This document shows, one piece after another, positions 11,970-22,285 of a DNA stretch of 38,157 bases. The notes below the pieces were generated by a model. The model saw only the letters and a program-made list of their open reading frames with translations. It had not been told where the DNA came from and made no database searches. Where the stretch lies: contig JAOADD010000026.1 in the NCBI GenBank assembly GCA_026417495.1, positions 1 to 38,157 of the forward strand, given 5' to 3'. This DNA is from Ignavibacteria bacterium. GTDB taxonomy: Bacteria > Bacteroidota > Ignavibacteria > Tepidaquicellales > Tepidaquicellaceae. The translations under genes and the position numbers were made by a program. The first letter of the stretch is position 1; each line of letters begins with the position of its first letter.

Positions 11970-12059
11970 AAGTTTAGATAATTAAATTTATTGTTTTTAC
12001 AATATTAACACAGTATTTTAGATAAAATAATCAAGTATAAAATTATATTAAATGATTTT

Positions 12060-12704
12060 ATGAGAAAAAATAAACAAAGAGGAATTATATTTTTAAATGG
12101 ATATATACCAGAAGAAAAAATCTATAAATATTTTATCAAGGGTAAGTGCTATATCATTTTTGCAGATGGTGCAGCAAACTTAATGCGAAAAAGTAAAATA
12201 CTACCAGATGTAATTTTAGGAGATCTCGATTCTGCTACAATGGAAACGCTTAAATACTATTTAAAGAGAAATGTTTTAGTAATGAAATTTACTGAGCAAG
12301 AGACAACCGATTTTGAAAAATCACTTTTGCATCTTGAAGAAAAAGGGATAAGAGAAATTTATGTTTTTGGTTTTATGAGTTTGAGACCAGACCACAGTTT
12401 GAATAATTTTAGCATAATGAAAAGGTATTACAAAAAAATGGATATTTATTTTGTCGATAGTGAATACATAACAAACTTCATAAAAAATAAAATAAGGTTT
12501 GAATATAAAGTCAATGAGGTTATTTCACTATTACCATTCCCTTATGCGAAAGGGATAAAAACAAAAGGTCTACAATACCCACTCAATAATGAAGACTTAA
12601 TACTTGGGATAAGAGAAGGAACTTTAAATTATTCTAATACAAAAAAAGTAGAGATAAGTTTTATAGATGGAGATTTACTTTTATTCAGAAAGCATTTCTT
12701 ATAA
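12060..12704 (+). CDS. thiN: Thiamine pyrophosphokinase
   Basis: This enzyme transfers pyrophosphate from ATP to thiamine, making thiamine pyrophosphate directly (salvage). At 214 residues it is the normal length. Motifs in order are ADGAAN (35-40), PDVILGDLDS (49-58) with the metal/ATP-binding aspartates, ETTDFEK (81-87) and LRPDHSLNN (108-116). In the last motif the usual Gly-Gly before Arg is replaced by Ser-Leu, a mild deviation. It is the first gene of a probable three-gene operon, and the symporter gene starts 6 bp after its stop. The 90 bp upstream contain no recognisable TPP riboswitch. The symbol follows the Bacillus name for this activity. Confidence 0.9.
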   Translation: MRKNKQRGIIFLNGYIPEEKIYKYFIKGKCYIIFADGAANLMRKSKILPDVILGDLDSATMETLKYYLKRNVLVMKFTEQETTDFEKSLLHLEEKGIREIYVFGFMSLRPDHSLNNFSIMKRYYKKMDIYFVDSEYITNFIKNKIRFEYKVNEVISLLPFPYAKGIKTKGLQYPLNNEDLILGIREGTLNYSNTKKVEISFIDGDLLLFRKHFL

Positions 12705-12710
12705 AACAAT

Positions 12711-14132
12711 ATGAACTATATTAATTTCGGTATAGGCGATTATATAATAGTAATAATTTATTTTATAATCTGCGTATATTTAGGGACATCAACAAAGAGA
12801 ACTGATGGTAATTTAACAGACTATTTAGTTGCTGGTAGAACGATAACTCTACCAGCTTTTGTTGCAACATTAGTATCAACTTTCTATGGTGGAATTCTTG
12901 GAGTAGGAGAATTTACATTTAGATATGGTATTTCAAGTTGGTTACTAAACGCTCTCCCCTATTATATATTCATATTAATATTTGCATTCTTTTTTGCTGA
13001 AAAAATCAGGAAATCAGAATTAAGAACTATACCTGAAAAACTGGAAATTTCATTTGGTAAAAAAGTTAGTCTAATTGGTTCAATATTTATATTCTTTCTT
13101 ACTACACCCGCACCATATTTGTTTATGCTTGGAATATTAGTTCAAATGATTTTTGGGCTTGATTTATGGGTTGCAATGATTATCAGTCTTTTTGTTTCAA
13201 TAATATTCTTGTTTAGAGGTGGTTTGAAAGCAGATGTAAGAGTTAATATATTAGAATTTATCATAATGTTTGCAGGTTTCATGATGATCTTACCTTTTTG
13301 TTTCTTCAAATTAGGTGGAATCGAATATTTGAAAAACAATTTATCGGGAAACTATTTCTCTTTAACAGGTAATCATAGCACACTATATATTATAGTTTGG
13401 TTTTTTATTGGTTCATGGGCTCTTGTTGACCCATCTTTTCATCAAAGATGTTATGCAGCAAAAAGTGCAAAAGTTGCTAGAAATGGGGTACTTATATCCC
13501 TAATCTTCTGGATTTTATTTGATTTTCTTACTGTAACTACAGGTTTATATGCTGCATCTCATTTGAAAAATTTAAATAATCCAGTTGCAGCATATCCAGC
13601 ACTTGCAGATAGTATATTACCACAATTTTTAAAAGGCTTCTTTTTTACTTCACTACTTGCTACAATCATGTCTACTTTTCACTCGTACCTTTTCATATCC
13701 GCTACTACATTTGGAAATGACATTATGAAATCATTTCCTAAATTCGCTTCACGAACAAGTTATATAGATTTATCAAAAATAGGAATTGTAATTACATCCA
13801 TAATATCTTTCATAATACCATTTATAATTCCTTCTGTAGTTGAAATGTGGTATACAATAGGAACTCTTGTAATACCACCACTTTTAATATCGATATTATT
13901 TTCTTATTTTAAAAAAAATTATATCCAAAGAGGGTTTATTTTAGTTGCGATGATATCCTGTTTTTTTGTTTCATTATTTTGGTTTATCTACGGTAACTTG
14001 TTACAAACAGAAAAAACGCAAAAGTACCTTTTAGATTTAGAACCTTTATATCCAGGTTTAGCAGTAGGTATATTATTTATTTTAATTGGTTTAGTTATTA
14101 ATTTAGTAAAAAATGAAAAACAGGTTGTTTGA
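12711..14132 (+). CDS. Sodium:solute symporter family transporter (SSS)
   Basis: 473 residues with about 12-13 hydrophobic helices. The N-terminus (DYIIVIIYFIICVYLGTSTKR ... LTDYLVAGRTI) and the following ATLVSTFYGG are typical of the sodium/solute symporter family, which uses the sodium gradient to import sugars, amino acids, vitamins or other solutes. Family members cannot be assigned a substrate by eye. Its position, 6 bp after thiamine pyrophosphokinase and overlapping the patatin gene by 20 bp, shows co-expression. Uptake of thiamine or a precursor is therefore an attractive but untested inference. The last transmembrane helix (LYPGLAVGILFILIGLVI) is complete and the short tail is basic. 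Confidence 0.88.
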   Translation: MNYINFGIGDYIIVIIYFIICVYLGTSTKRTDGNLTDYLVAGRTITLPAFVATLVSTFYGGILGVGEFTFRYGISSWLLNALPYYIFILIFAFFFAEKIRKSELRTIPEKLEISFGKKVSLIGSIFIFFLTTPAPYLFMLGILVQMIFGLDLWVAMIISLFVSIIFLFRGGLKADVRVNILEFIIMFAGFMMILPFCFFKLGGIEYLKNNLSGNYFSLTGNHSTLYIIVWFFIGSWALVDPSFHQRCYAAKSAKVARNGVLISLIFWILFDFLTVTTGLYAASHLKNLNNPVAAYPALADSILPQFLKGFFFTSLLATIMSTFHSYLFISATTFGNDIMKSFPKFASRTSYIDLSKIGIVITSIISFIIPFIIPSVVEMWYTIGTLVIPPLLISILFSYFKKNYIQRGFILVAMISCFFVSLFWFIYGNLLQTEKTQKYLLDLEPLYPGLAVGILFILIGLVINLVKNEKQVV

Positions 14133-16863
14133 GAAAATATTGATATCATTATTATTAATTTTTTTTTGTAATATATTTAATGTAGCATATTCACAAATCA
14201 ATCCTGATAGTAATAAAACTGTACTTACATTACCTTTAAGGCCAAAAGAGAACTTTGATACAAACAGATTTAATATTTTTTCTAAAAAATATAATTTGAA
14301 GAAAGTAGCTCTTGTTTTAAGTGGAGGTGGAGCAAGAGGTTTTGCCCAAATAGGGGTATTAAAAGCACTTGAAAGAAGTGGAATTCAAATTGATATGATT
14401 GTAGGAACAAGCATTGGAGCTATTATAGGTGGATTATATTCATCAGGATATACTGCAAACGAACTTGATTCATTAGCAAGAAATATTAACTGGACAGAAA
14501 ATTTAAAATTAACAAACAAATATAATCGACAACAGCTTTTCCCAATACAAAAAAGTATTCAGGACAAAAGTATATTAACTGTTTCATTAGAAGGTTTAAA
14601 ACCTGTTATTCCCACTTCCCTGTCAAGTGGGCAACAAATTACTGAAATATTAAACACACTTTTTCTCAATTCTAGATATAGACCTAATTATGATTTCAGT
14701 AATATTAAATATAGATTTTTTTCAGTTGCAACAGATTTAAATAAAGGAACAAGGGAGGTATTATCAAATGGAAATATAACCGAATGCGTAAAAGCATCTT
14801 TTACATTTCCACTATTGTATACGCCAATGCAAATAAAAGGTAGATTGTTAATAGATGGAGGTTTAACAGCAAACATTCCTGTAGATGTTGCTTTTGAAAA
14901 TGGTGCTGATTATGTGATAACAGTTAATTCTACAAGTCCTTTAAAAACAGAAGAGGAATTAAAAGAGAACCCAATTAACACAGCAGATCAGATTGTTTCA
15001 ATAACAATGGCAAGATTAAACGAACAACAATTGAAGAAATCAAATTTCACTATAACTCCAGAAATAGGTAGGCACAATGCTGAAGACTTTTCAAATATAA
15101 ATTTTCTTATTAGTAAAGGAGAAGAATCCACATATTTAAGAATAGAAGAACTTAAAAAATCTTTAGATTCTCTAGAAGCAGCAGCATCTCCACAATTTAA
15201 TTATTTTATCATAAATCCAAAGGTAATTATAGACTCACCATTAATACCTGATAGTATTAAAACAGGAATAATTGCCTATCAAGAAAATAATTTTGTAAAA
15301 TATATTACCATAGAAAAGACTATGCGTAATTTATATGATCTTGGTTATTTTAGAGATGTAAAAGCAGAAATATTTAGGAAAGATGGTGAGCTAATTTTAA
15401 AATATGCATTTGAAGAAAATCCAATTTTAAAGTCAATAAAAACAAACTCAAAATACGGATTTTTAGATTCGACAATAAATGAATTTTCAAAAGCAAATTT
15501 GAATAAAATATTAAATTATAAGAAATTAGAAACCCTTTATGAAACATTGTTGGGACAATTAAAATCTCATGGATATAGTTCAATAGATATTACAAAATTT
15601 TATTTTAATTGGAGTGAAAGTATTTTAGAAATAGAATTTGATAATGGACTTATTAATAATATAATCGTTACAGGAAATATAACCACGAAAAAGGAAATGA
15701 TATTATCTGAACTAACAATTAATAATCAAAGACCAATAACAGAAAACCAAATATTAAATGATCTAAGGAATTTATACAGCCTTAATTTATTCACACAGTT
15801 AACTTTCAACATCTTGAACACAGGTAATAGTAAAGATTTAACCATAAATTTAGTAGAAAAGAGTTCAAAAACTTTAAGTCTAGCTTTAAGAGCTGATAAT
15901 GAGAGGAACCTTCAAGCTTTTGTAGATATAAGAGACCAGAATGTATTTGGAACGGGAACTGAGATAGGACTATCATTAATTGGTGGCTTGCGTAATTTTG
16001 ATTTGAAGTTTGATATAAACAGGAACAAAATTTTTAAAACAGATTTCACATTTAATTTATCTGGATATTACACATTTGTTAATCACTATTTATATAGAGA
16101 AGATATCTCTAATAATTCATTTTCTATTACACAACTTGGTGAATATAGAAATATAAAATTTGGAGCCAGTTTACTGGTAGGCACACAGTTGGAAAAGATA
16201 GGAACAGTATACTCGCAAATATCAATAGAAAATTTTAAAACGAAAAATATAAGTAATACAAATTTTGACTTCGAAACAAGAGTTTTCAAATTAAAATTTG
16301 GTGGAAAAATTGATACGCAAGATGAATATCCCTTTCCAAATCAAGGTACAATTATAGAATATTATTATGAAACAGCACAAAATCAATTAAGAGGTTCTGA
16401 AGCTTACTCAAAACTGTATTTGGATTTTGAACATTATTTTGCAATAGATAAGTCATTATCCTTAAAACCAAAGTTCTTGTTTGCATTTGCAGATAATGCA
16501 ACTCCTTTAAATGATTGGTTTTTTATGGGAGGAGAAAATAATTTTATGGGTATGGTGGAAGATGAAATCTCAGGAAGACAATTATTTATCTCATCACTTG
16601 AATTTAGATACAAACTCCCATTTAAAATATTCTTTGATACATACTTGTCATACAGATATGATTTAGGAAGAATTTGGAATAATACCTCCGATATTAAACT
16701 AATAGATTTAAGACATGGAATGGGACTTTCTGCAATTTTTAGTACTCCGCTTGGAAAAGCGAGTTTTTCATTTGGAAAATGTTTTTATATTAATGAAGGA
16801 ATCGAGAATAATTTGGTCTGGGGACCAAATACATTTTATTTTACAATAGGATATGATTTATAA
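14113..16863 (+). CDS. Patatin-like phospholipase fused to POTRA and Omp85 barrel
   Basis: 916 residues. A signal peptide (1-28, ending AYSQ) leads into a patatin lipase domain at about 65-260. The oxyanion motif is GGGARGF, the nucleophile is S100 in GTSIG, and D248 in DGG completes the Ser-Asp dyad. POTRA-like segments follow (about 375-590, for example LINNIIVTGNITTKKEMILSE), then a C-terminal Omp85/BamA-like barrel ending in a beta-strand (FYFTIGYDL). This resembles the PlpD/type Vd arrangement, in which the barrel places the lipase at or outside the outer membrane. Whether the lipase is released here is unknown. It overlaps the symporter gene by 20 bp, so it is the third gene of that operon. 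Confidence 0.92.
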   Translation: MKNRLFEKILISLLLIFFCNIFNVAYSQINPDSNKTVLTLPLRPKENFDTNRFNIFSKKYNLKKVALVLSGGGARGFAQIGVLKALERSGIQIDMIVGTSIGAIIGGLYSSGYTANELDSLARNINWTENLKLTNKYNRQQLFPIQKSIQDKSILTVSLEGLKPVIPTSLSSGQQITEILNTLFLNSRYRPNYDFSNIKYRFFSVATDLNKGTREVLSNGNITECVKASFTFPLLYTPMQIKGRLLIDGGLTANIPVDVAFENGADYVITVNSTSPLKTEEELKENPINTADQIVSITMARLNEQQLKKSNFTITPEIGRHNAEDFSNINFLISKGEESTYLRIEELKKSLDSLEAAASPQFNYFIINPKVIIDSPLIPDSIKTGIIAYQENNFVKYITIEKTMRNLYDLGYFRDVKAEIFRKDGELILKYAFEENPILKSIKTNSKYGFLDSTINEFSKANLNKILNYKKLETLYETLLGQLKSHGYSSIDITKFYFNWSESILEIEFDNGLINNIIVTGNITTKKEMILSELTINNQRPITENQILNDLRNLYSLNLFTQLTFNILNTGNSKDLTINLVEKSSKTLSLALRADNERNLQAFVDIRDQNVFGTGTEIGLSLIGGLRNFDLKFDINRNKIFKTDFTFNLSGYYTFVNHYLYREDISNNSFSITQLGEYRNIKFGASLLVGTQLEKIGTVYSQISIENFKTKNISNTNFDFETRVFKLKFGGKIDTQDEYPFPNQGTIIEYYYETAQNQLRGSEAYSKLYLDFEHYFAIDKSLSLKPKFLFAFADNATPLNDWFFMGGENNFMGMVEDEISGRQLFISSLEFRYKLPFKIFFDTYLSYRYDLGRIWNNTSDIKLIDLRHGMGLSAIFSTPLGKASFSFGKCFYINEGIENNLVWGPNTFYFTIGYDL

Positions 16864-19434: not shown

Positions 19435-20010
19435 TTAATATTCAATTCCTTTTTTAGCAATAATTCCTTTATCGAAATAATGTTTAATCTTTTTCATTTG
19501 AGTTATTAAATCAGCAGAATCTTTTAATTTTTTCCAAATTTTCCTACCTGTAAGGATAAGTTCAAAATTACGATTTTTATTATATAATTCAATAATTTCT
19601 TCTACTTGCTTTTTACTTAGTAATTTTGTGTAAACAGCAGAAATTATTTCATCTAAAATCAGAATATCTTGTTTACCTTTTGATATCAAATCTTTAGTGA
19701 GTTTTAATCCACTTAATGCTTCTTCATAGTCAGAATTAATATTTTCGAATCTAAATCTTCTTTTCTTATCAATTCTAAAATTACCAGTTGAATATAAATT
19801 TATTTTGAATCCCTTATCCTTTAAAAAATTAATAATTCTTCGCTCTGAGTAGAATTCATCGCTGCCACCTTTGTCAAATTGGATAATTGTAATTCTTTTA
19901 CCAGCACCGATTGCTCTTAAAGCTAATCCTAAAGCAGCAGTTGTTTTTCCTTTTCCATCACCATAGTAAATATGGATTGAATTAACATTATTCTTATTTT
20001 TAATATCCAT
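19435..20010 (-). CDS. cobO: Cob(I)alamin adenosyltransferase, CobO/BtuR type
   Basis: Transfers the adenosyl group of ATP to reduced corrinoid, making coenzyme B12. At 191 residues it is the normal length for the CobA/CobO/BtuR family. The P-loop GDGKGKTTAA (from residue 17) and IQFDKGG match the family, as does LILDEI, the Walker-B-like strand. It lies 46 bp downstream of the BtuB-like receptor, which itself follows a cobalamin riboswitch, so it is plausibly under the same control. With no other cobalamin-synthesis genes in view, it fits salvage of imported corrinoid. Confidence 0.93.
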   Translation of the reverse strand: MDIKNKNNVNSIHIYYGDGKGKTTAALGLALRAIGAGKRITIIQFDKGGSDEFYSERRIINFLKDKGFKINLYSTGNFRIDKKRRFRFENINSDYEEALSGLKLTKDLISKGKQDILILDEIISAVYTKLLSKKQVEEIIELYNKNRNFELILTGRKIWKKLKDSADLITQMKKIKHYFDKGIIAKKGIEY

Positions 20011-20056
20011 TTCAGGATTTAGATATATCTGAATTTACTTTTTATGAACACATTTT

Positions 20057-21985
20057 TCAATTAAATAAGGAAAGTTTTAATAAATAATTTCGTAATGGCA
20101 TAGGATAACCAGGCATAATAGAATAATCTGTGTTTGTAATATTATTTATCTCAAATGTTAATCTCAATCTGAAATAATCAAATTTTAAATTATAATAAAC
20201 ATTACCGTCAAGGACACCAGCAGGATTTAAAGATTCAGTGTTCTGTGCATCAGAATATCTTTTACCAATTAAATTGTAGAATAAATTAATTCCTAAATCT
20301 TTATACATAAAATTTAAATCAAGCTTAAATAAATCGATTGGCACATAAGGTAATTGTTTATCTTTAGATAAGTCACCAATATAATCCTCATTTACTTTTT
20401 TAGCATTGTTGTAAGTATAATTTGCGTTTATTACAAGTGATATATTCGTTCCTAAATTATATATGCTTTTAAAATCTATTGAGAAAATATTTGATAGTGT
20501 CTTTCCAATATTTACAGGAGTCCAGATACCTAATTGAGGATTATATAACCAGGTAATTTTATCTTTCATAAAAATATTAGTGTAATTAAAATCTATTAAA
20601 TTATTTCCAATTAGTTTAAAACCATAAATAAACCCTGCATCTATATTAAGAGCATTTTCTGGTTTTAAGTCAGGATTTCCACCAGGTATCCAATATAAAT
20701 CATTAAATGCAGGAACTCTTCCATTGTTGCTAATACTAACTCTTATATGAAAATCTTCTGTTCTAATGGGTCTTAAATTAATTCCTAATTTAGAGTATAA
20801 TTTTTTATATTCTACATCAGAAGCGGATTCATATCTTAAAGAAGGAAAGATTTTAAGATTATCAATTACATTAAACTCTCCTGTTATGAAAATTCCCGTA
20901 AGCGTTCTTTTTATATTTTTAATTGTTTCACTCTCAAAAGTATTATAATTTATTTCAGCACCAGAATAAATAGAATATTTATTAAATAATTTAGTACCTT
21001 CAAGTTGAATTACATAATTTCTATTTGAATAATAATCCCTGAACAAACCAATTGCTTCATAATTTATTATATTTTCTTGATAACCAAATTGAGTCTTAAA
21101 AGAAAAATTATCAATTTTCTTATATTCAGCTTTTATGATATTAACAAAACTTCTATCTTTTTGTTTTTCAGTCATAGTAAAAAATGAATTTAAAGCTGAG
21201 GGGAGATTCCTATCAAGCAAATAATAATATCCGTAGTAATTAATACTAAAATCTTGCCAAAGTTCTAAATTAGAATTTAAAGTAAATTTATTCCCCGAGA
21301 ATGAAGCATTTTCTCTCTTTTGCTTGATTAAATTAATTCCATTATTGTAATAGAAGTCATAATTATTGTTAGATTTTTCTTTATTATATCCAAAACTAAT
21401 TGAAGCAATTTTGTTTGAAAATATAGTGTTAAAACCTAAATTATAATACCCATATGAACCAGCAGCTGAGTTAAATCGCCAATTAAAAAGATATTTTTTC
21501 CCATTTGAAAAATTTAAATCCTGAGTTCGGATATTAATAACACCTCCAGAAGCATCTGAACCATATAACGAACCATATCCGCTATTTAACACTTCAACTC
21601 TTTCAACATCTTCCAATGGAATCATAGATAAATCAACTTGAGAATTCTGTTGAGAATTTAACTTTATTCCATTTAACAGAACAGCACTTTGTTCAGCACC
21701 CAGACCATTAAAAGAAATGGTTTTTAAAGAATTAATTCCAGCATATGACTTTAGATGAACCCCTCCGCAGTAATTAATAACATCATACAATTTTCCCCCA
21801 TTTAAATTATCTATATCCTGTTTTAGAAAAATCTTTACATCCACAGGAGAATAAAGTAATGAATGTTGAACTTTATTTCCATAAACAACAATTTCATCAG
21901 TTTTATAACTAGTAGAATCATATTGTGCGAAAGCTGACATCGATACAAAACATAAAACAAAAATGAAAATAATTTTTTTGTCCAT
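20057..21985 (-). CDS. btuB: TonB-dependent outer-membrane receptor, probable cobalamin transporter (BtuB-like)
   Basis: 642 residues. A signal peptide (1-20, cut after SAFA) is followed by a TonB box at about 30-36 (DEIVVYG). The plug domain runs to about residue 155, including NGGKLYDVINYCGGVHLKSY, VLLNGIKL and the plug-end motif GSLYGSDASGGVINI. The remainder is a 22-strand-type barrel rich in aromatic residues. There is no N-terminal carboxypeptidase-like extension, so it resembles small-ligand receptors rather than SusC glycan porins. Specificity for cobalamin is inferred from the riboswitch immediately upstream and the cobO gene downstream. Confidence 0.9.
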   Translation of the reverse strand: MDKKIIFIFVLCFVSMSAFAQYDSTSYKTDEIVVYGNKVQHSLLYSPVDVKIFLKQDIDNLNGGKLYDVINYCGGVHLKSYAGINSLKTISFNGLGAEQSAVLLNGIKLNSQQNSQVDLSMIPLEDVERVEVLNSGYGSLYGSDASGGVINIRTQDLNFSNGKKYLFNWRFNSAAGSYGYYNLGFNTIFSNKIASISFGYNKEKSNNNYDFYYNNGINLIKQKRENASFSGNKFTLNSNLELWQDFSINYYGYYYLLDRNLPSALNSFFTMTEKQKDRSFVNIIKAEYKKIDNFSFKTQFGYQENIINYEAIGLFRDYYSNRNYVIQLEGTKLFNKYSIYSGAEINYNTFESETIKNIKRTLTGIFITGEFNVIDNLKIFPSLRYESASDVEYKKLYSKLGINLRPIRTEDFHIRVSISNNGRVPAFNDLYWIPGGNPDLKPENALNIDAGFIYGFKLIGNNLIDFNYTNIFMKDKITWLYNPQLGIWTPVNIGKTLSNIFSIDFKSIYNLGTNISLVINANYTYNNAKKVNEDYIGDLSKDKQLPYVPIDLFKLDLNFMYKDLGINLFYNLIGKRYSDAQNTESLNPAGVLDGNVYYNLKFDYFRLRLTFEINNITNTDYSIMPGYPMPLRNYLLKLSLFN

Positions 21986-22005
21986 ATTTTTTTATTTAAT
22001 TCATT

Positions 22006-22062
22006 AAAAAAAAATCCTTTAGTCTTCAAAATCCAGTAAAGATTCTGAAGGCTAAAGGATTT
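22006..22062 (-). terminator. Intrinsic terminator in the leader of the btuB-like gene
   Basis: In the minus-strand transcript, a 17-bp stem (positions 22062-22046 with 22028-22012, one C-A mismatch) closes a 17-base loop and runs into nine U (22014-22006). It sits between the riboswitch aptamer and the btuB start, so it is the likely expression platform: termination when cobalamin is bound. Confidence 0.88.
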
Positions 22063-22111
22063 AACAAATTAACTCTTCACAATCTTTACCTGGAAGATTG
22101 TATGAAGAAAC

Positions 22112-22272
22112 CTCCTCAGGATAGGTCTCCTGACTTCAGTAAGACTTATAAAGTCTCCCATCTCCCCTTCCCATCCATAAAAGGACAGTGGTAATGGAAA
22201 TGGATTTAACTGTTACAGTTGCTAGGACAGTTCCGGATTCTCACCGGATTCCCTTTAAAATACATCCTGAAG
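22112..22272 (-). promoter_or_regulatory. Cobalamin riboswitch aptamer
   Basis: The minus-strand RNA contains the conserved core in order: GGGAA, CCGGTGAGAATCCGG, then ACTG, GCAACTGTAA, and finally the B12 box region GTCAGGAGACCTATCC. The closing P1 helix is CTTCAGGAT (22272-22264) with ATCCTGAGG (22122-22114). Its 3' side is followed by a terminator just before the btuB-like start. The aptamer begins 35 bp after the dCMP deaminase stop codon. Confidence 0.95.
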
Positions 22273-22285
22273 ATATAGAAAAGAA

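What the first reader, a model, noticed from the sequence alone, without database searches (positions are those of the whole stretch)
12060..16863. Thiamine pyrophosphokinase, a sodium symporter and a patatin-Omp85 protein in one operon: candidate vitamin-uptake unit
The three genes are separated by 6 bp and then a 20-bp overlap, so they are probably co-expressed. Thiamine pyrophosphokinase acts on imported thiamine. Other bacteria pair it with a transporter (PnuT or ThiT types), while here the partner is a sodium:solute symporter of unassigned substrate. The link to thiamine is inference from context. No TPP riboswitch is visible in the 90 bp upstream, which weakens it.
Basis: partly seen in the sequence, partly recalled or inferred. 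Interest (0 to 1): 0.5.

Follow-up and report, generated by a model that had tools for sequence, protein, structure and literature searches.

The report
Sodium symporter as bacterial thiamine importer
In a group of bacteria that seem unable to make vitamin B1, a sodium-driven transporter sits where related bacteria keep a different B1 importer, so it very probably brings in vitamin B1, and the gene next to it turns the vitamin into its active form.

Summary
Observation confirmed: TPK (12060-12704), SSF symporter (12711-14132), patatin-Omp85 (14113-16863), 6-bp gap, 20-bp overlap, no TPP riboswitch in the window. In 149 genomes of the class, TPK->SSF adjacency occurs in 77; in 59 of these a TPP riboswitch lies upstream in line, with a TonB receptor between wherever I read it. 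In the window's family (12 genomes) the unit is split: riboswitch and receptor lie elsewhere. The SSF nearly excludes the alternatives: of 109 SSF+ genomes, 2 have ThiC and none a PnuC/PnuT over cut-off; of 40 SSF-, 33 have one of them. In one family PnuC/PnuT-type gene and SSF alternate right after TPK. No ThiC, ThiE, ThiD, ThiG, PnuC/PnuT or ThiT was found in this genome, so it should need imported thiamine. The SSF group is separate from PutP, PanF and ActP. Patatin-Omp85 is probably a passenger. SSF-family thiamine/HMP transporters (ThiV, SSSP, DUR31) are known; whether this group is one of them or an independent recruitment is unsettled. Uptake is untested.

The parts
12060..12704 (+). 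Thiamine pyrophosphokinase (TPK, thiN type): thiamine + ATP -> TPP + AMP
   Evidence: TIGR01378 equivalog over cut-off; PF04263 and PF04265; solved TPKs matched; the only TPK match in the genome
12711..14132 (+). Sodium:solute symporter family protein, proposed inner-membrane Na+:thiamine symporter
   Evidence: PF00474; confident model, pLDDT 91.4, among the nearest solved folds SGLT2, CHT1, SiaT; adjacent to TPK in 77 of 149 genomes, with a TPP riboswitch upstream in line in 59; nearly exclusive with ThiC and PnuC/PnuT
14113..16863 (+). Patatin-POTRA-Omp85 protein, co-transcribed by position; probably a family-specific passenger
   Evidence: PF01734, PF07244, PF01103; follows the SSF in all 12 sampled family genomes but in 0 of 66 named loci outside that type (55 of the 66 hold at least 1 kb after the SSF)
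11970..12059 (.). 90-bp intergenic leader without a TPP riboswitch
   Evidence: the genome's one TPP riboswitch hit is at G000:C62 upstream of a TonB receptor

Best explanation
TPK and SSF are the two inner steps of a thiamine (vitamin B1) salvage route in a probably thiamine-auxotrophic relative of the Ignavibacteria. A TonB-dependent receptor, encoded elsewhere in this genome under a TPP riboswitch, brings thiamine across the outer membrane (inferred). The SSF protein carries it across the inner membrane with Na+ (inferred). TPK pyrophosphorylates it to TPP, trapping it in the cell (established chemistry of the family). When TPP is plentiful the riboswitch should lower receptor synthesis, and in relatives the whole operon (inferred). 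The SSF does the job that PnuT does in Bacteroidetes and stands in PnuT's place in the operon. Patatin-Omp85 is an unrelated rider.
For: 1) TPK->SSF adjacency, same strand, in 77 of 149 genomes of the class and in 73 of the best 80 named loci (80 kept of 573 confirmed), including KSB1, Calditrichota, Armatimonadetes and Neomarinimicrobiota bins. 2) TPP riboswitch upstream in line with TPK - SSF in 59 of 149. The gene between is a TonB receptor wherever read: by family models in L097 and L107, by similarity to the own receptor in L094, L095, L105 and L106; a receptor profile matches upstream in 52 of 80 named loci. Outside the window's family type, 41 of 45 named loci with at least 3.6 kb upstream have the riboswitch. 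3) One locus reads riboswitch - thiM - thiE - thiL - TonB receptor - TPK - SSF. 4) All 12 sampled genomes of the window's family have a TPP riboswitch just upstream of an orthologous TonB receptor; the own one scores 57.3 bits, gathering score 54.3. 5) SSF against ThiC or PnuC/PnuT (over cut-off): 2 of 109 SSF+ and 33 of 40 SSF- genomes have one of them, with switches inside three families. In family f17 a PnuC/PnuT-type gene follows TPK in two genomes where the three others have the SSF. 6) The own genome has no ThiC, ThiE, PnuC/PnuT or ThiT match; its ThiD- and ThiG-family hits are a heptose kinase and a nitronate-monooxygenase/FabK-type enzyme. 7) The SSF orthologues form one group of 39 rows (100/99) apart from PutP, PanF, ActP and three other SSFs of this genome.
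Against: No uptake, expression or growth data. Sodium coupling and the thiamine ligand rest on family and context. In this genome TPK-SSF has no riboswitch of its own. In some families the SSF is not next to TPK (f3, f14, f19, f20, f21, and G111 of f7). Seven of the 80 named loci lack TPK right upstream. Two genomes have both ThiC and SSF, and seven have neither SSF, ThiC nor PnuC/PnuT; one SSF+ genome (G135) has a PnuC-family hit below cut-off. The tree is unrooted and several outgroup rows have long branches, which the program flags. ThiBPQ-type ABC transporters and ThiL were not searched in this genome.
Confidence: 0.87

Rival explanations
1. The SSF is a ThiV-type importer of the pyrimidine precursor HMP (or another B1 fragment), not of thiamine.
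For: SAR11 cells take up HMP, and the riboswitch-controlled SSF ThiV is the likely carrier (PMC11452348: passages and section 18). Kryptonia-type genomes (f16) and G121 keep ThiE, so HMP could be used there. Phe followed by His or a polar residue, reported for HMP/thiamin symporters, is present here as F243-H244 (81 and 70 of 81 sequences).
Against: This genome has no ThiE match and no true ThiD, so HMP could not be built into thiamine. ThiE is over cut-off in only 12 of 77 TPK-SSF-adjacent genomes. The usual partner is TPK, whose substrate is thiamine. The acidic residue reported in cTMD3 of HMP/thiamin symporters has no conserved counterpart here (at most 25 of 81 at any position 115-152).
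Confidence: 0.08
2. TPK and SSF are neighbours for reasons unrelated to thiamine; the SSF imports proline, pantothenate, choline or another solute.
For: SSF proteins carry many solutes. By sequence the closest solved structure is a choline transporter (9rws). In a genome of family f3 the SSF sits by fumarase-like and gmhA-like genes, away from TPK (names by eye).
Against: Riboswitch membership, the alternation with a PnuC/PnuT-type gene after TPK and the near-exclusion with ThiC; separate group from PutP, PanF and ActP.
Confidence: 0.04
3. The three genes including patatin-Omp85 form one vitamin-uptake unit, Omp85 being the outer-membrane part.
For: 20-bp overlap here and conserved order in all 12 sampled family genomes; the TonB receptor is not in this operon in this family.
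Against: A TonB receptor is present at its own riboswitch locus in all 12. Patatin-Omp85 was not found in the other 66 named loci, 55 of which hold at least 1 kb after the SSF. Omp85 proteins insert or export proteins, as generally known, rather than import vitamins.
Confidence: 0.03

Closest known systems
OMthi-PnuT-TPK (tnr3) thiamine salvage operons of gut Bacteroidetes under TPP riboswitches
   Same: TPP riboswitch, TonB receptor, inner-membrane transporter and thiamine pyrophosphorylating enzyme; the operon can be split, as in B. thetaiotaomicron (PMC5613172, passages)
   Different: The inner-membrane transporter is an SSF protein, not PnuT; B. thetaiotaomicron also has a thiamine synthesis operon, whereas 107 of 109 SSF carriers here have no ThiC match
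ThiV / SSSP / SSSQ sodium:solute symporters (SAR11, Methylobacillus, algae, fungi)
   Same: SSF family, often with TPP riboswitches, thiamine-related uptake proposed (PMC11452348, PMC4260697; passages and one section)
   Different: ThiV of SAR11 is the likely HMP carrier; partners named in the passages are thiamine synthesis genes, not TPK plus TonB receptor; the cTMD3 acidic residue is not conserved here. A tree with ThiV could not be built
DUR31 thiamin transporter of Candida
   Same: SSF-family protein shown genetically to take up thiamin (deletion gives pyrithiamine resistance), with a TPP riboswitch in many species (PMC5997356, passages)
   Different: Fungal; no tree made with it
PutP, PanF, ActP of E. 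coli
   Same: SSF family
   Different: Fall outside the group of the window protein

Membership tests
Thiamine pyrophosphokinase (TIGR01378) | Equivalog model score over cut-off | tested here: met
   137.6 bits, cut-off 76.4
Thiamine pyrophosphokinase (TIGR01378) | Catalytic and B1-binding domains | tested here: met
   PF04263 and PF04265 over cut-off
SSF / SLC5 family | PF00474 match and the fold of solved SSF proteins | tested here: met
   108.2 bits, cut-off 22.8; model pLDDT 91.4, query TM-scores 0.81-0.85 to the best SGLT2, CHT1 and SiaT entries
SSF / SLC5 family | Na+-coupled transport | not testable with these tools
   needs uptake assays; Ser321/Thr322 are nearly invariant in the alignment; that they form the Na2 site is recalled family knowledge
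TPP-riboswitch thiamine salvage regulon | TPP riboswitch upstream of the gene or operon | tested here: met
   59 of 149 genomes in line with TPK-SSF; in the own family only at the receptor, not at TPK-SSF
PnuT (PF04973) | PnuC-family (NMN_transporter) protein | tested here: not met
   no PF04973 match in the own genome; the transporter is SSF
ThiV/SSSP/SSSQ | Phylogenetic placement with ThiV | not tested
ThiV/SSSP/SSSQ | Acidic residue in cTMD3 (SiaT position 139) | tested here: inconclusive
   no position 115-152 is acidic in more than 25 of 81 sequences, which speaks against it; register to SiaT not established
ThiV/SSSP/SSSQ | cTMD6 Phe followed by His or polar residue | tested here: inconclusive
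   F243 81 of 81, H244 70 of 81; register to SiaT not established
PutP/PanF/ActP-type SSF | Groups with the characterised protein | tested here: not met
   window group of 39 rows, support 100/99, excludes them

The most novel reading that the evidence does not exclude
A so far unnamed SSF subfamily, recruited independently of ThiV/SSSP/DUR31, is the main inner-membrane thiamine importer of Ignavibacteria, Kryptonia and relatives (with KSB1, Calditrichota and Armatimonadetes carriers). It has swapped places with PnuT inside the same riboswitch operon, making Na+ symport one of two interchangeable solutions for B1 uptake in TonB-receptor-bearing bacteria.
Probability: 0.5. Interest if true: 0.6.

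Novelty: new variant of a known kind. Interest (0 to 1): 0.5.

Why it matters
It gives a testable function to a widespread symporter group known here only by its broad family (PF00474), predicts that most members of the class sampled here cannot make their own B1 (ThiC in only 25 of 149 genomes), and offers a natural swap (PnuC/PnuT-type gene and SSF after the same TPK) in which a facilitator plus kinase trap and a secondary active symporter can be compared.

Tried and rejected
Looking for a hidden TPP riboswitch before TPK in the window: none. Getting a ThiV relative from plasmid records: 80 records hold matches, all under 60% identity, and the four neighbourhoods I opened with 3 kb on each side (a fifth, smaller) list no thiamine genes; the first four served as outgroup rows. 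ThiG hit over cut-off (26.9 bits, 95 of 247 positions): the frame is a nitronate-monooxygenase/FabK-type enzyme (PF03060 221 bits, FabK model 321.7 bits but below its own cut-off of 453.1). ThiD hit below cut-off: the frame is a heptose-7-phosphate kinase (TIGR02198 362.8 bits, cut-off 345). Patatin-Omp85 as outer-membrane importer: rejected.

Rows dropped or limits: the hand-copied table uses one best SSF place per genome with at least 189 bits (109 genomes); the 115 include six genomes with weak matches only (G004, G015, G035, G045, G054, G144). One search did not list its weakest riboswitch rows, so riboswitch counts are lower bounds. The 149 genomes are an even draw from a larger class. 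PnuC/PnuT counts use hits over cut-off (10 of 11; G135 dropped). ThiE counts use hits over cut-off (39 of 46), some of them partial. The 80 named loci overlap in part with the G genomes (e.g. L139 = G055, L178 = G121, by equal contig length), so the two sets are not independent, and some riboswitches used to build the model come from the same records as loci it then found. The Fisher value ignores relatedness; I rely on the within-family switches. In the tree the fifth SSF of this genome (L211, partial) was left out. Family labels f1-f24 are the tool's. Named by eye from sequence: the fumarase-like, gmhA-like and prepilin-like frames.
Full report
What is there. The gene upstream is divergent and adenylosuccinate lyase follows. 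No TPP riboswitch is in the window by three searches. The window is contig C76 of a 2.19-Mb genome, 99.77% complete; the named relatives of its SSF are mostly bins labelled Ignavibacteria/Ignavibacteriae, Bacteroidetes, Kryptonia and Melioribacteraceae.

Is the pair conserved? I searched the SSF, the TPK and the TPP riboswitch family through the same 149 genomes, an even draw from the class, and compared coordinates. TPK was found in 138, an SSF orthologue (at least 189 bits) in 109, and TPK directly followed by the SSF (gap under 300 bp) in 77. In 72 genomes a TPP riboswitch lies within 8 kb upstream of TPK on the same strand, and in 59 riboswitch, TPK and SSF are in line, usually with about 2.5 kb between riboswitch and TPK. 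Where I read that space it holds a TonB-dependent receptor: by family models in L097 and L107, by similarity to the own receptor in L094, L095, L105 and L106. One genome, G141, has riboswitch, receptor and SSF without a detected TPK. Another, G121, has riboswitch - thiM - thiE - thiL - receptor - TPK - SSF.

A scan of named species genomes kept the best 80 of 573 confirmed stretches. Of these 80, 73 have TPK just upstream and 52 a receptor match upstream; 44 have the riboswitch by a model built from this class. Outside the window's own type, 41 of 45 loci with at least 3.6 kb upstream have it; of the 14 loci of the window's type, 11 of them with that much room, none has it.

Why the window lacks the riboswitch. 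In all 12 sampled genomes of the window's family the TPP riboswitch sits directly before a lone TonB receptor, orthologous across the family (58-84% to the own one in the other 11) and 33-36% identical to the receptors downstream of riboswitches in other families' operons. In this genome it is at contig C62 and reaches 57.3 bits against a gathering score of 54.3 when searched permissively; the class-wide search, with stricter filters, had given 45.8. So the regulon has been split: receptor and riboswitch in one place, TPK and SSF in another. B. thetaiotaomicron also has a split thiamine operon (PMC5613172, passages).

Does the genome need thiamine? It has no ThiC match and no ThiE match. Its ThiD-family hit, below cut-off, is a heptose-7-phosphate kinase, and its partial ThiG-family hit, just over cut-off, is a nitronate-monooxygenase/FabK-type enzyme. 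It has no PnuC/PnuT match and no ThiT match. ThiBPQ and ThiL were not searched. It has five SSF matches; this one is next to the only TPK match.

A natural replacement. Over the 149 genomes, ThiC occurs in 25 and a PnuC/PnuT-type transporter over cut-off in 10, never together. Of 109 genomes with the SSF, 2 have ThiC and none a PnuC/PnuT over cut-off (one, G135, has a weaker hit); of 40 without, 23 have ThiC and 10 PnuC/PnuT, leaving 7 with neither, six of them from one family in which no TPK was found. The switch is seen inside three families: f7 (4 PnuC/PnuT, 1 SSF), f11 (9 ThiC, 4 SSF) and f17 (2 PnuC/PnuT, 3 SSF). In f17 the PnuC-type gene of G043 and G115 stands immediately after TPK, where the other three have the SSF, and in G115 the upstream riboswitch is there too. 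The NCBI model calls these two genes nicotinamide riboside PnuC; that they are PnuT is inferred from TPK and riboswitch.

What kind of SSF. The orthologues form one group of 39 rows (support 100/99) that excludes E. coli PutP, PanF and ActP, three other SSFs of this genome and four plasmid SSFs; the tree is unrooted and several outgroup rows have long branches. Y59, E67, Y85, P241, F243 and D271 are invariant in 81 sequences and D240 nearly so. AlphaFold2 gives a confident model (mean pLDDT 91.4) with helix breaks at residues 58-61 and 240, where LeuT-fold transporters bind substrate (recalled). The nearest folds include SGLT2, the choline transporter CHT1 and the sialic acid symporter SiaT. 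A cation site built from E67, D240 and D271 for the positively charged thiamine is a guess to be tested.

Thiamine or HMP? In SAR11, where cells take up HMP, the SSF protein ThiV is the likely carrier (PMC11452348, passages and one section), and fungal DUR31 is a thiamin transporter by genetics (PMC5997356, passages). Algal and bacterial SSSP genes often carry TPP riboswitches and were proposed to move thiamine or HMP (PMC4260697, passages). Here thiamine is favoured because the usual partner is TPK and because 65 of the 77 adjacent genomes, this one included, have no ThiE over cut-off, without which HMP is useless. Whether this group is part of ThiV/SSSP could not be tested by tree; the reported cTMD3 acidic residue has no conserved counterpart.

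Patatin-Omp85. It follows the SSF in all 12 sampled family genomes and in the 14 named loci of that type, but was found in none of the other 66, of which 55 hold at least 1 kb after the SSF. I take it as a co-transcribed neighbour.

Novelty. In the held open-access library I ran ten searches (one search failed). In their listings and in the passages I read of four papers I saw none pairing TPK with an SSF protein or naming this group; papers outside that library, such as Rodionov et al. 2002 (seen only as cited in PMC4260697), could not be read. The system is a new variant of a known kind: the riboswitch - TonB receptor - transporter - TPK salvage unit, with an SSF protein as the transporter.

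Noticed in passing
window 19435-22284, - strand: Cobalamin riboswitch (RF00174, 93.8 bits, 22103-22284) upstream of a BtuB-like TonB receptor (20057-21985) and a corrinoid adenosyltransferase (19435-20010): a likely B12 salvage operon about 2.6 kb beyond the patatin gene.
   Followed up: partly
G004, G015, G025, G035, G045, G054 (family f6): Six genomes (68-94% complete) with no TPK match, no ThiC, no SSF orthologue and no PnuC/PnuT; four have ThiE and three have TPP riboswitch hits. How they obtain TPP is open.
   Followed up: no
L092:6642-6797 (-), own genome C62: The TPP riboswitch of this genome has a stretch of 67 nt where the Rfam consensus has 7 (P3 region), and scored below the gathering score under the stricter filters.
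   Followed up: no
L101 (G001, family f3) and L190: SSF orthologues away from TPK lie by fumarase-like and gmhA-like genes (by eye), while ten of twelve f3 genomes show riboswitch and TPK in line elsewhere: the operon split the other way round.
   Followed up: partly
G065 and G129: The only two of 149 genomes with both ThiC and the SSF; possibly recent regain of synthesis.
   Followed up: no
L154 and L170: Armatimonadetes bins with a TPP riboswitch and TPK - SSF but no TonB receptor match between them; in L154 a prepilin-like frame (by eye) lies there.
   Followed up: no
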